From a virus: a stretch of 21,875 nucleotides of DNA. A program made the translations under genes and the position numbers. The notes below the pieces were generated by a model that was not told the origin of the DNA, did not search any database, and worked only from the letters and a program-made list of their open reading frames with translations. The stretch covers positions 1-21,875 of the IMG/VR virus record IMGVR_UViG_3300032086_004318. The stretch is one strand, 5' to 3'. This document shows positions 9,244-12,255 of the stretch, in pieces. Position 1 is the stretch's first letter, and each line of letters starts with the position of its first letter.

Positions 9244-10374
9244 TTACTCGGTAAAACCTGGCTGGTTTTTTGAGTTGGCTTCCTTGAAGTGCTCGAAGAT
9301 GTTGACATAATTAAGCTGAATGTTCTCAATCCTAGAGGGGGCAATCACATCGTCAAGGCCACGAGCCTCAAGATGTAGCGGATTACAGCAATATTTTTCG
9401 CAACCTTTCTTTGTATGTATCCGATACTTCCCAACGAAGCCTCGGCTCAGCCAAAAAGCGACCCTCATCGCTGATTGAGTCGCTCCTGAGTGGACGGGTG
9501 AAGGGCAGTAGGCAACCGATTCGGTGCCACCTTTCTTCGTGGCTCCAAGCCAGGGCCAGCATTCGTCTTCACCGCGCACGTCGACCTGGTCCCAGAACCG
9601 TTTGACTGTCCAATACCAGCGGTAGTCGAACTGGGTGACGTCAACAGTGCAGCGGCCCTGCTTGAGCTCCTCTAAGCAGTCCAGGCACTCACCCATGTGG
9701 CCGAAACGGCCCTTGTGCTCCTTCGTGCCGTTGCGGTGCCAGGGGCACTCCATCTCGTTGGCCATGTGGTAGTCGAGTTCGTACCGGCGAACCTCTTCTG
9801 GATGGCTGAGAGCGAGCTTCTGCAGCACGGCATCAAGGTTGTCCCAACCTTCGCTGAGGTTAGAGCTGCTTAGCGCTTCTGGCATCCCATCAAAGGTGTA
9901 GCCTCTGCGGATTTTTCTTACTCTTTGATACGAAAGGTTGAATCTGCGAGCGACTTCCTTATTGGAAAGCCCGTGGTCCACAGATTTGATCTTCGTAACT
10001 AGGTCCGGGGTGAGAGCGTCACCGTTCCTTTGGTTCGTTTCAAGCCGTACGTCCGCCATCGTCCCGTAGTAGTAGTGAGACGGGTTGAGGCAGAACTTGC
10101 AATCACAAGTGTGCCTGCGAACAATCACTCGGTTCTCTTCATCCGGGTATTGACCGATCATCGCCAAGAGGAAAGGCCTGGCGTCCAACGTTTTGTAGAA
10201 CAGATGGTTTCGTTTGCTGTTGACGAAACCAGAGAAGATGTTGTGCCTGGATTGGTTGAGGTCCCAGCAGGCGCTCTTGCCTGAGATTTTCATGAGGACC
10301 TGGAAGGCCTTGGCGAAAACGATGGCGTCAGGGGGGATCAGGCCGTTGTCGCGAAAGAATTCCAGGGTTTCCAT
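9244..10374 (-). CDS. Tandem HNH endonuclease-like protein with central HTH
   Basis: 376 aa, ATG start. Three parts can be seen. Residues 35-117 form an HNH-type zinc module: C36-W, R-H88-T-C90-D-C92-x2-C95-L-N-P-S-H100, then YGTMADVRLETN. Residues 121-160 form a resolvase-like helix-turn-helix (LTPDLVTKIKSVDHGLSNKE, then VARRFNLSYQRVRKIRRGY). Residues 259-338 form a second HNH module of the homing type: FWDQV, ECWPWLGA, R304-V-A-F-W, C325, CCNPLHLEARG. Between HTH and second HNH is a CPWH...ECLDC cluster that may bind another zinc. Each half resembles single-domain phage homing enzymes. Two catalytic modules joined by an HTH could cut two sites or act as a DNA-binding regulator. It is transcribed away from the large palindrome. 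Confidence 0.8.
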   Translation of the reverse strand: METLEFFRDNGLIPPDAIVFAKAFQVLMKISGKSACWDLNQSRHNIFSGFVNSKRNHLFYKTLDARPFLLAMIGQYPDEENRVIVRRHTCDCKFCLNPSHYYYGTMADVRLETNQRNGDALTPDLVTKIKSVDHGLSNKEVARRFNLSYQRVRKIRRGYTFDGMPEALSSSNLSEGWDNLDAVLQKLALSHPEEVRRYELDYHMANEMECPWHRNGTKEHKGRFGHMGECLDCLEELKQGRCTVDVTQFDYRWYWTVKRFWDQVDVRGEDECWPWLGATKKGGTESVAYCPSPVHSGATQSAMRVAFWLSRGFVGKYRIHTKKGCEKYCCNPLHLEARGLDDVIAPSRIENIQLNYVNIFEHFKEANSKNQPGFTE

Positions 10375-10399: not shown

Positions 10400-10428
10400 A
10401 CCGTACCCAGAGAACCCAGTCGTGTCAA
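10400..10428 (-). promoter_or_regulatory. Putative promoter for the tandem-HNH gene
   Basis: On the minus strand TTGACA (10423-10428) is a perfect -35 hexamer; 17 bases further is TACGGT (10400-10405), a poor -10. It lies about 26 bases before the ATG at 10374 and just outside the palindrome. Confidence 0.4.
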
Positions 10429-10437
10429 CGGTTCTCG

Positions 10438-10599
10438 TTGCGTCCACCAAACATGATTTTAAAACGTCCTTTTTACTTCTTTCTATAGAGAGGGGGTCTA
10501 GGTCATTGTGCGTTCATTTTTTATCCCACAATCCCCTAGACCCCTTTCCTATACGTCTAAATAAAAACCCGGTTTTAAAACTATGTTTGGAAGACGCAA
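10438..10599. repeat. 162-bp imperfect palindrome: two outward-facing copies of a 65-bp element
   Basis: Every base i was compared with the complement of base 21037 minus i; about 57 of 81 pairs match with no gap. The arms 10438-10502 (minus strand) and 10535-10599 (plus strand), read outward, match at 48 of 65 positions. Shared blocks in order: CCTAGACCCC, CTATA, TAAAAA, GTTTTAAAA, ATGTTTGG and GACGCAA. The centre adds ATTGTG (10505-10510) against CACAAT (10527-10532). It lies between the divergent tandem-HNH gene and the 10920 operon. It could be a replication origin, paired promoters with a shared operator, or the recognition site of a phage protein. Confidence 0.85.
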
Positions 10600-10693
10600 G
10601 GCCAAATCCCTTGCAGCGCAGGCGTTTTGCCTGGGTTAAGACCGCCCTGATCGGGGTTGCCCCTCACTTCGTTGTTAGTCAGACCGCCCTTTT
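10600..10693. other. Non-coding stretch with a 10-bp direct repeat and small hairpin
   Basis: Between the palindrome and the 10694 gene no convincing gene is seen. AGACCGCCCT occurs twice, at 10639-10648 and 10681-10690, 42 bases apart. Between the copies, GGGG-TTG-CCCC can form a small stem. An 18-codon frame beginning ATGTTTGGAAGACGC at 10583 runs from the right arm of the palindrome to 10639. Confidence 0.4.
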
Positions 10694-10870
10694 CTACCGA
10701 CTCTGTGTGTGATAGTCCTCAAACATCTGAGCAAAGTTGATTGCGCTGTAAATATCTCTCGAGTATTTGCATACAGAACCCGTGGAGGAGCAGCTTCTGT
10801 ATTCGGGGTAACTTGGGCTGTTGTCTACTTCGACTGTCGAACCTTTCGGGAAAACCTTTAGCAGTTTCAT
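10694..10870 (-). CDS. Small Tyr/Ser-rich hypothetical protein (58 aa)
   Basis: The ATG at 10870 gives 58 aa beginning MKLLKVFPKGSTVEVDNSPS, followed by YPEYRSCSSTGSVCKYSRDI and ending FEDYHTQSR. An upstream TTG at 10885 would add five residues. Balanced composition, two Cys and many Tyr and Ser look protein-like, but no family is recognised and no ribosome site is seen. A TACAAT -10-like sequence (10893-10898, minus strand) lies upstream, overlapping the proposed plus-strand promoter. It faces the palindrome. Confidence 0.5.
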   Translation of the reverse strand: MKLLKVFPKGSTVEVDNSPSYPEYRSCSSTGSVCKYSRDIYSAINFAQMFEDYHTQSR

Positions 10871-10897
10871 TGATCTGATAGCCAATGTTACTATTGT
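10870..10897 (+). promoter_or_regulatory. Putative promoter for the 10920 operon
   Basis: TTGATC (10870-10875), 16-bp spacer and TATTGT (10892-10897) would start RNA near 10904, ahead of AAGG (10912-10915) and the GTG at 10920. The -10 overlaps a minus-strand -10-like TACAAT, so divergent transcription could compete here. Confidence 0.35.
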
Positions 10898-10919
10898 ATG
10901 AAAGGATTACCAAGGTAAA

Positions 10920-11519
10920 GTGGCAGAGAGGCCTAAGTACTATCCCCCTGCAGGGAGTGATTTTCTGAGTATTACCGACATTATCGGTAACTTTTTGGGC
11001 AACTTGGGCTTCGGCGCAAAGCTTCCAAGGGATATTCCGATGTACGGCGGCGGAGGTTCTATCTCGGGCCTGAGCGGATCTGTACCTGAGCGAATTAGAG
11101 AATCAAAAGTTTCTCGACCTGAGCCAGTTATTGAGCAGCGTCAAGAAGAAAGAGTAGAGGAGAAGCCAAAAGAGATTGATTCCTCGACTCTTGCACTTGG
11201 AAGCCAGTTGCAATTGCCAAAGACAGGTACAAGCGAAGATCTCGTCAAGATGTATGCAGCCCAGCGTTCGGCGGGTCAGTACAACATGCCCGAGATCCAA
11301 AGGATGTACATGGAGCAAGGGCGCCCCGATCTGGCCAAGTGGGCGGAAGCCAACCCCGATTTGGCGCAACGCGAGTACATGAAGTCCATTCAGAAGATGG
11401 GTGCTCGGCCAGAAGGTGAGGAGCTGATCGAGGCCTACGGCGGCGGTGAGCCGAAAGAAGGTGACGAAATTATCGATGCAGTGCGCTTCCTTAAGAAAAA
11501 AGCAGGACTCGAAAAATGA
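10920..11519 (+). CDS. Probable virion-associated protein (199 aa)
   Basis: GTG start with AAGG four to eight bases upstream. Segments: a polar head with an amphipathic patch (SDFLSITDIIGNFLGNLGFG), a Gly-rich stretch (MYGGGGSISGLSGS), a charged linker (EQRQEERVEEKPKE), and helices with MYAAQRSAGQYNMPEIQRMY and LAKWAEANPDLAQREYM. A basic C-terminal helix closes it. This modular low-complexity layout is common for phage head-interior or tail accessory proteins; no named family fits. It is the first gene of a four-gene plus-strand operon (10920-12401) with overlapping or nearly abutting genes. Confidence 0.65.
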   Translation: MAERPKYYPPAGSDFLSITDIIGNFLGNLGFGAKLPRDIPMYGGGGSISGLSGSVPERIRESKVSRPEPVIEQRQEERVEEKPKEIDSSTLALGSQLQLPKTGTSEDLVKMYAAQRSAGQYNMPEIQRMYMEQGRPDLAKWAEANPDLAQREYMKSIQKMGARPEGEELIEAYGGGEPKEGDEIIDAVRFLKKKAGLEK

Positions 11520-11917
11520 TGTACAATCCCGCAGGTTTTGATGACACTGATCTGATTTCAGATCCCCAGGCCCGTCAGCGGGCACTTCCCGGCGGTTACG
11601 CCAACCAGGGCGAGATGGTGAGTGCTCCTTACCGTCAGGCCAACATGGCTGCAGCAGAGAAAACCAATGAGATGAACGCCATCTCTCAGGAGCCTGGCAA
11701 GGCATTTCTCGATCAGTACATGCAGAAAGCCGGAGCGGAGCAAGGTCAAACTGCCTTCGATCCATTCAAGTTCTTCGGCGGCAAAGCTATGGAACAGGGC
11801 GATAAAGCCCGCCATGGAGAGCTAGAAGAGGAGCCGGATGCGGGCCTTGGGGCTGCTAACAGCATTCTTCGTGCACGGCAGCAGCAGATGGAAATGATGC
11901 GCCAACTGGGTTATTGA
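11516..11917 (+). CDS. Probable virion-associated protein (133 aa)
   Basis: Starts at ATG 11516, overlapping the previous stop (ATGA), with a second ATG three bases on. It is rich in Gln, Met, Ala and Gly: YRQANMAAAEKTNEMNAISQ, then FLDQYMQKAGAEQGQTAFDP, FKFFGGKAMEQGDKARHGE, and a C-terminal helix (ILRARQQQMEMMRQLGY). Helical, polar and without Cys, it resembles scaffold-like or internal virion proteins by composition only. It is second in the 10920-12401 operon. Confidence 0.65.
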   Translation: MMYNPAGFDDTDLISDPQARQRALPGGYANQGEMVSAPYRQANMAAAEKTNEMNAISQEPGKAFLDQYMQKAGAEQGQTAFDPFKFFGGKAMEQGDKARHGELEEEPDAGLGAANSILRARQQQMEMMRQLGY

Positions 11918-11919
11918 TC

Positions 11920-12255
11920 ATGGGTGACAACGATTTTCCTGCAGTCATGGCCAACGGAGGCCAGTTCCTGAGCGGTTACATGCAACGCAAAGGCTTGTAC
12001 CAGCAGTCAGGCACTGATATCCCTGAAGGCTCCATGCGTTATGTGGTTGAGCAGCAGCTCGGTGGACCACTGAAAGGAGAAGTGGAGATTGCGGGTCAGA
12101 TCCGTAGCTTGCCTGGTGCGACACCCGCTAACGCAATCATCAAGGCTCCGCACATTGACTCTCCTTTTATGGATAAACTGTTCGAGCGGGGCATGCAGCG
12201 TCCAAGCCTTCCCGCAAAACCCAAGTCAGGCCCTCAACTTCCAGGTTTTGTCTGA
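11920..12255 (+). CDS. Hypothetical protein, virion-like composition (111 aa)
   Basis: ATG at 11920, two bases after the previous stop; a TTG two codons upstream is possible. N-terminal MGDNDFPAVMANGGQFLSGY is followed by a helix and a Pro-rich tail (FERGMQRPSLPAKPKSGPQL). No catalytic motif. Its small size, Met/Gln/Gly-rich head and Pro-rich tail match its operon neighbours, suggesting they serve one structure or process. The next gene starts two bases after its stop. Confidence 0.6.
   Translation: MGDNDFPAVMANGGQFLSGYMQRKGLYQQSGTDIPEGSMRYVVEQQLGGPLKGEVEIAGQIRSLPGATPANAIIKAPHIDSPFMDKLFERGMQRPSLPAKPKSGPQLPGFV

What the first reader, a model, noticed from the sequence alone, without database searches (positions are those of the whole stretch)
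10438..10599. 162-bp imperfect palindrome made of two diverging 65-bp elements
The centre between two divergent transcription units is symmetric about position 10518.5. The outward-read arms (10502-10438 minus, 10535-10599 plus) agree at 48 of 65 positions with no insertion or deletion. Conserved blocks CCTAGACCCC, CTATA, TAAAAA, GTTTTAAAA, ATGTTTGG and GACGCAA are separated by short diverged blocks. Such conservation in blocks suggests protein-binding or promoter elements under selection rather than a recent duplication. Candidates are a phage replication origin, paired promoters for a phage or host polymerase (the CCTAGACCCC-N5-CTATA part is reminiscent of single-subunit RNAP promoters), or a site cut or bound by the adjacent tandem-HNH/HTH protein.
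Basis: partly seen in the sequence, partly recalled or inferred. Interest (0 to 1): 0.82.

Follow-up and report, generated by a model that had tools for sequence, protein, structure and literature searches.

The report
Palindromic control site of cyanophage regulator
Just upstream of one gene in a large, uncultured family of cyanobacterial viruses sits a long mirror-image DNA site whose two halves keep changing together, most likely the docking site through which the virus controls the DNA-binding protein made by that gene, a protein that appears to be a worn-down DNA-cutting enzyme turned regulator.

Summary
The palindrome is real: 48/65 matching positions, against 35/65 for the next best in the window. 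It is conserved in viral relatives, not chance. Two details need correcting. The spacing is CCTAGACCCC-N4-CTATA, not N5. The next gene on the right is a 63-aa minus-strand ORF, so the divergent operon begins only at 10920.

In relatives, marine ones with psbA included, a symmetric site is centred about 140 bp upstream of the adjacent HNH-HTH-HNH gene (65 of 71 loci, p<=0.05). A DNA-only search of 2.9 million viral contigs gave 24 hits, all 139-140 bp upstream of this gene. The arms evolve in concert, and a conserved sigma70 promoter of the gene lies just outside one arm. The gene is resident (76/76 loci). Its endonuclease-type catalytic histidine is lost in 49 of 66 relatives while the zinc ligands stay invariant, and the predicted structure's nearest matches include I-PpoI and the DNA-binding domains of Smad and NFI.

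Best reading: a palindromic operator or assembly site bound by this degraded-endonuclease protein, which controls its own promoter. Binding itself is not shown. Phage-RNAP promoters, homing target and RNA hairpin are disfavoured. A replication origin remains possible.

The parts
10438..10502 (-). HNH-side arm (H arm), read outward towards the HNH gene
   Evidence: 48/65 identical to the other arm; conserved in 17 other related contigs
10535..10599 (+). other arm (K arm), read outward
10503..10534 (.). 32-bp centre between the two Box 1 copies; contains CACAAT on each side and an A/T-rich core ATTTTTTAT (10516-10524)
   Evidence: length constant in all freshwater relatives that have the pair
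10493..10502 (-). Box 1 of the H arm, CCTAGACCCC (TACCTAACC in marine relatives)
10535..10544 (+). Box 1 of the K arm
10468..10488 (-). Box 2, H-specific form CTATAGAAAGAAGTAAAAAGG
   Evidence: arm-specific and conserved
10549..10570 (+). Box 2, K-specific form CTATACGTCTAAATAAAAACCC
   Evidence: arm-specific and conserved
10438..10454 (-). Box 3 ATGTTTGG plus lineage-specific tip GACGCAA (H arm)
   Evidence: tips match within genomes more than between genomes
10583..10599 (+). Box 3 plus tip (K arm)
10400..10428 (-). sigma70-type promoter of the HNH gene: TTGACA (10423-10428), 17 bp, TACGGT (10400-10405); the -35/spacer is the H copy of Box 4
   Evidence: 59/66 relatives TAnnnT, 53/66 spacing 17, score 10.9 vs 8.5 shuffled; for position
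10608..10622 (+). K copy of Box 4 (CCCTTGCAGCGCAGG); same layout as the H copy but no -10 follows
9244..10374 (-). 376-aa HNH-HTH-HNH-like protein; start codon 144 bp from the centre of the palindrome
   Evidence: PHROG HNH matches, HTH, catalytic His lost in most relatives, structure
10694..10885 (-). 63-aa ORF reading towards the element, conserved in freshwater relatives, missing from some marine ones; probable ATG at 10868-10870
10920..12255 (+). three-gene operon on the far side; sequence variable, order conserved

Best explanation
The palindrome is a cis-regulatory operator or nucleoprotein assembly site belonging to the gene for the adjacent HNH-HTH-HNH-like protein. SHOWN by sequence: a symmetric site with four boxes per arm (Box 1 CCTAGACCCC/TACCTAACC; Box 2 TATA plus an A-rich run; Box 3 TTTGG plus tip; Box 4 TTGnnnCG) is held at a fixed distance, about 140 bp, upstream of this gene; its two arms change together across lineages; the H-side Box 4 overlaps the -35 and spacer of a conserved sigma70 promoter; the protein keeps zinc and HTH DNA-binding features but has mostly lost its nuclease histidine. 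INFERRED: two (or more) copies of the protein, each with several DNA-binding modules, bind the inverted arms, and the complex represses or activates the promoter, giving autoregulation. In marine relatives a second Box 1 pair about 220 bp away would allow co-operative binding or looping. Whether the protein also controls other phage functions is unknown.
For: A DNA-only pattern scan gave 24 contigs and in 24/24 the HNH gene starts 139-140 bp from the centre, whereas the distance to the opposite operon varies from 288 to 2036 bp. A symmetric site lies 133-159 bp upstream of the gene in 65/71 loci at p<=0.05. The palindrome persists with a different sequence in a 36%-identical relative (L311) and where the protein is split in two (L286, L302). 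Arms evolve in concert: own arm best or near best in most of 20 lineages (rank 1 in 14), within-genome score 32.4 against 14.2 between genomes, permutation p 5e-5, and 8.5 in a control with the same choice of centre; tip permutation 2/5040. Box 1 copies with 0-1 mismatches occur only at this locus in marine genomes of 55-87 kb. Conserved sigma70 promoter. Gene resident in 76/76 loci. Catalytic position H88 is His in only 17/66, zinc ligands C90, C95, H100, C325, C329, H334 invariant. Model with pLDDT 80; structural matches I-PpoI, I-HmuI and Smad MH1 for the N-terminal part, NFI for 208-344.
Against: No binding or expression data exist. The structural matches are modest (Z 4.3-5.9) and plain Foldseek gives nothing at E<=0.001. 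The arms (65-105 bp each) are far longer than a usual operator. The K arm has a Box 4 but no -10. Six of 71 loci show no significant symmetry. Another phage or host protein could be the binder.
Confidence: 0.5

Rival explanations
1. Replication origin: inverted arms and A/T-rich centre are initiator sites on which the phage primase-helicase (P4/D5-type) or the HNH-HTH protein starts replication.
For: One such locus per genome with clustered inverted sites and A/T-rich core, two pairs in marine relatives; a P4/D5-type primase-helicase gene ends about 2 kb away in the window; S-EIV1, which lacks a detectable homologue of this HNH gene, has concentric inverted repeats near its primase.
Against: GC and AT skew show no clear turn at the element in G007, G025, G026 or G028. 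The position is locked to the HNH start, not to the primase, whose start is 6.8-8.6 kb from the centre in three marine loci.
Confidence: 0.2
2. Two divergent promoters read outward from the CTATA blocks, served by a phage or modified host RNA polymerase.
For: Arms point outward; CTATA lies at a promoter-like distance from Box 1; loose likeness to single-subunit RNAP promoters (own knowledge).
Against: One pair per genome even in a 67.7-kb contig; no T7-type RNAP in long relatives or S-EIV1 while the T7 control rings; a conserved sigma70 promoter outside the arm already serves the HNH gene; the K arm faces an oppositely oriented ORF in the window.
Confidence: 0.1
3. A structured RNA or ssDNA hairpin (both arms pair with each other) is the functional form.
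For: Either strand folds into a long hairpin, z about -9; arms co-vary.
Against: Any palindrome folds; arm mismatches show no strand-specific G-U preference (176 vs 151); no credible Rfam family; the conserved internal asymmetry is arm-specific sequence; a promoter lies between the hairpin and the HNH gene.
Confidence: 0.08
4. Homing or cleavage target of the HNH protein, or an end of a mobile element.
For: HNH motifs; the gene is adjacent to the site in all loci.
Against: No empty site in 76/76 loci; catalytic His replaced in 49/66; conserved gene order on both sides.
Confidence: 0.05
5. Neutral quasi-palindrome: template switching during replication keeps making the arms alike.
For: Tips and some other positions are homogenised within genomes.
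Against: Arm-specific Box 2 forms stay different and conserved in both arms; distance to the gene start is fixed; Box 1 is kept at great divergence.
Confidence: 0.05

Closest known systems
I-TevI operator in phage T4 (homing endonuclease that autorepresses its late promoter; PMC2988022)
   Same: Phage nuclease-type protein with a site of its own immediately upstream of its gene, at or next to the promoter.
   Different: I-TevI is a GIY-YIG intron enzyme, active and mobile, with a roughly 20-bp operator; here a resident gene, catalytic His mostly lost, site a 160-200-bp palindrome with co-evolving arms, and a host-type sigma70 promoter.
[quoted passage not shown]
   Same: His-Me-finger fold reused for sequence-specific DNA binding after loss of catalysis (Smad MH1); NFI binds palindromes; structural matches for both end domains.
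   Different: Eukaryotic; here a phage protein with two such domains plus an HTH; similarity is modest (Z 4.3-5.2 for Smad/NFI) and not significant by sequence.
Autoregulated plasmid replication initiators (e.g. F plasmid RepE; own knowledge, listed)
   Same: Initiator with an inverted-repeat operator upstream of its own gene.
   Different: No iteron array or replication evidence here; no Rep-family match.
T7/SP6-type phage promoters
   Same: CTATA block and upstream conserved block.
   Different: Single locus, no phage RNAP found, arms about three times longer, rigid inverted pair.
Intergenic concentric inverted repeats of cyanophage S-EIV1 (KJ410740, 7830-7968)
   Same: Palindromic intergenic region near the primase gene.
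   Different: No sequence likeness and no detectable HNH-HTH-HNH homologue in that genome.

Membership tests
Single-subunit (T7-type) RNAP promoters | Phage encodes the polymerase | tested here: not met
   PF00940 absent in contigs of 49-78 kb and in the complete S-EIV1 genome; T7 control E=1e-109. Contigs may be incomplete.
Single-subunit (T7-type) RNAP promoters | Several copies before phage operons | tested here: not met
   Only the one divergent pair per genome matches exactly
Homing endonuclease with autorepressor operator (I-TevI kind) | Site next to the protein's own promoter | tested here: met
   Fixed distance, promoter overlap
Homing endonuclease with autorepressor operator (I-TevI kind) | Mobile, sporadic presence with empty sites | tested here: not met
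   76/76 loci carry the gene
Homing endonuclease with autorepressor operator (I-TevI kind) | Active nuclease (catalytic His kept) | tested here: inconclusive
   His88 kept in 17/66 relatives, the window protein among them; activity not measured
Homing endonuclease with autorepressor operator (I-TevI kind) | Protein binds the site and represses | not testable with these tools
   needs gel shift and reporter assay
Degraded His-Me-finger transcription factors (MH1/NFI kind) | His-Me-finger fold | tested here: inconclusive
   HNH by PHROGs; I-PpoI Z 5.9, Smad4 MH1 Z 5.2, NFIB Z 4.7; Foldseek alone not significant
Degraded His-Me-finger transcription factors (MH1/NFI kind) | Catalytic histidine lost | tested here: inconclusive
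   Met in 49/66 relatives, not in the window protein itself, which keeps His88
Replication origin with initiator sites | Strand-composition turn or mapped initiation | tested here: inconclusive
Structured RNA | Covariation with G-U pairs on the transcribed strand | tested here: not met
   176 vs 151, no strand preference

The most novel reading that the evidence does not exclude
A whole lineage of cyanophages has turned a homing-type endonuclease into a multi-domain master DNA-binding protein (two degraded His-Me fingers around an HTH), independently of the animal Smad/NFI factors, that assembles as a symmetric complex on a co-evolving palindrome of about 200 bp to switch a phage programme or start replication.
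Probability: 0.35. Interest if true: 0.82.

Novelty: new variant of a known kind. Interest (0 to 1): 0.64.

Why it matters
It defines a conserved cis-element and its probable protein partner in a widespread uncultured cyanophage family, one that carries psbA in the sea. The concerted change of the two arms gives dozens of natural protein/site pairs for testing recognition. If the partner binds as proposed, it would be a phage case of a degraded endonuclease reused as a transcription factor, the route proposed for animal Smad proteins.

Tried and rejected
Phage RNAP promoters: rejected. RNA hairpin: folds well but no G-U strand bias. Homing target: no empty sites, catalytic His lost in most. 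Terminal or concatemer hairpin: not tested; several contigs end 0.4-4 kb from the element, mostly on the variable operon side, which I read as assembly breaks. GC skew for an origin: no clear signal. Similar DNA or HNH protein in isolated phages: none. Bacterial genomes: three weak, partial matches. First structure model (12 sequences) was too poor; rebuilt with 44. Covariation away from the tips (positions 27-31, 49-55, 56-60, 63-68) was not above chance. A telomere-resolution site was considered and set aside because the centre is not palindromic.

Full report
OBSERVATION. The neighbour on the right is a 63-aa minus-strand ORF, not the plus-strand operon.

WHAT CARRIES IT. The window is a whole 21,875-base viral record. 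Its primase is 33% identical to that of Synechococcus phage S-EIV1, and marine relatives carry psbA, so these are cyanophages. No isolate carries the adjacent HNH-HTH-HNH protein at E<=1e-5.

CONSERVATION. The DNA pattern recovers the pair from freshwater relatives, with a constant 32-bp centre, once per genome up to 67.7 kb. A scan with the HNH protein family gave 80 loci. In most, a symmetric site is centred 133-159 bp upstream of the gene, mainly 139-145. Of 71 loci, 61 reach p<=0.01 and 65 p<=0.05 against other places of the same locus. A search with DNA letters alone for a divergent marine Box 1 pair returned 24 contigs from 2.9 million; all 24 have the HNH gene starting 139-140 bp away. 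In marine genomes of 55-87 kb, Box 1 copies with 0-1 mismatches cluster only here; in several of them they form two divergent pairs 215-226 bp apart.

CONCERTED CHANGE. In freshwater genomes the arm tips (GACGCAA, GATAA, GGCCAA and so on) differ between genomes but agree within one: 0.66 within against 0.44 between, 2 of 5040 permutations. Other variable stretches did not exceed chance. Over 20 distant lineages the two arms of a genome align at a mean score of 32.4, against 14.2 for arms of different genomes (permutation p 5e-5) and 8.5 when centres are chosen the same way at random places. Arm-specific forms of Box 2 (CGTCT against GAAAG in freshwater) nevertheless stay fixed. This combination fits sites read by one symmetric protein with an arm-specific extra role, and fits poorly with free drift or with plain homogenisation.

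PROMOTER. Beyond the H arm lies TTGACA-N17-TACGGT (10428-10400). Across 66 relatives the best promoter-like site has TAnnnT in 59 and a 17-bp spacer in 53, mean score 10.9 against 8.5 (sd 1.06) in shuffles. The motif around the -35 (Box 4) has a counterpart on the K side without a -10.

PROTEIN. HNH matches and an HTH are clear in the window protein. The His of the N-terminal HNH (position 88) is His in 17 of 66, otherwise Ser, Ala, Gly or Cys, while C90, C95, N97, H100 and C325, C329, C330, N331, H334 are invariant. The window's own protein keeps His88, so nuclease activity there is not excluded. A 44-sequence model (pLDDT 80) compared with solved structures gives I-PpoI (Z 5.9), I-HmuI (5.4) and Smad MH1 (5.2) for the N-terminal part, and NFI (4.7) for 208-344. 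These Z values are modest and Foldseek alone is not significant. They agree with the sequence-based HNH assignment. A degraded homing endonuclease as a DNA-binding domain has a precedent in Smad. The gene is present in 76 of 76 loci recovered through a neighbouring gene, so it is resident and not a sporadic homing gene. In two relatives it is split into N and C halves and the element stays upstream of the N half.

MECHANISM. I conclude, at about 0.5, that the palindrome is the operator or assembly site of this protein on its own promoter. Position, symmetry, concerted change and protein type are shown; binding and the sign of regulation are inferred. I-TevI is the nearest documented behaviour. 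An origin of replication is the main rival: skew is uninformative and the site is locked to the HNH gene and not to the primase, but nothing excludes it. Phage-RNAP promoters, RNA hairpin and homing site are disfavoured.

LIMITS. The records are metagenomic fragments, related genomes are not independent, and no experiment exists.

Noticed in passing
10886-10898: TGTTACTATTGTA is fully conserved between the 63-aa ORF and the plus-strand operon in most freshwater relatives and occurs once in the window; possible promoter of one or both.
   Followed up: partly
L107:7725-8075 (S-EIV1): Intergenic region with concentric inverted repeats and a third direct copy of GGATATGTAAGAT, about 1.7 kb past the primase; candidate origin or operator of S-EIV1.
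   Followed up: partly
1500-1584: tRNA-Leu (TAA) gene on the minus strand, also in relative G007.
   Followed up: no
10920-12255: Operon of three small proteins whose sequence varies quickly between close relatives while gene order is kept; many related contigs end 1-4 kb from the element on this side.
   Followed up: no
L286, L302: The HNH-HTH-HNH protein is encoded as two separate ORFs, which marks a natural domain boundary near residue 167.
   Followed up: partly
L183, L154 and relatives: Marine cyanophage genomes of 55-87 kb with psbA and no isolated relative by these proteins; possibly the lineage of singleton gOTU G241 of PMC5332604.
   Followed up: no
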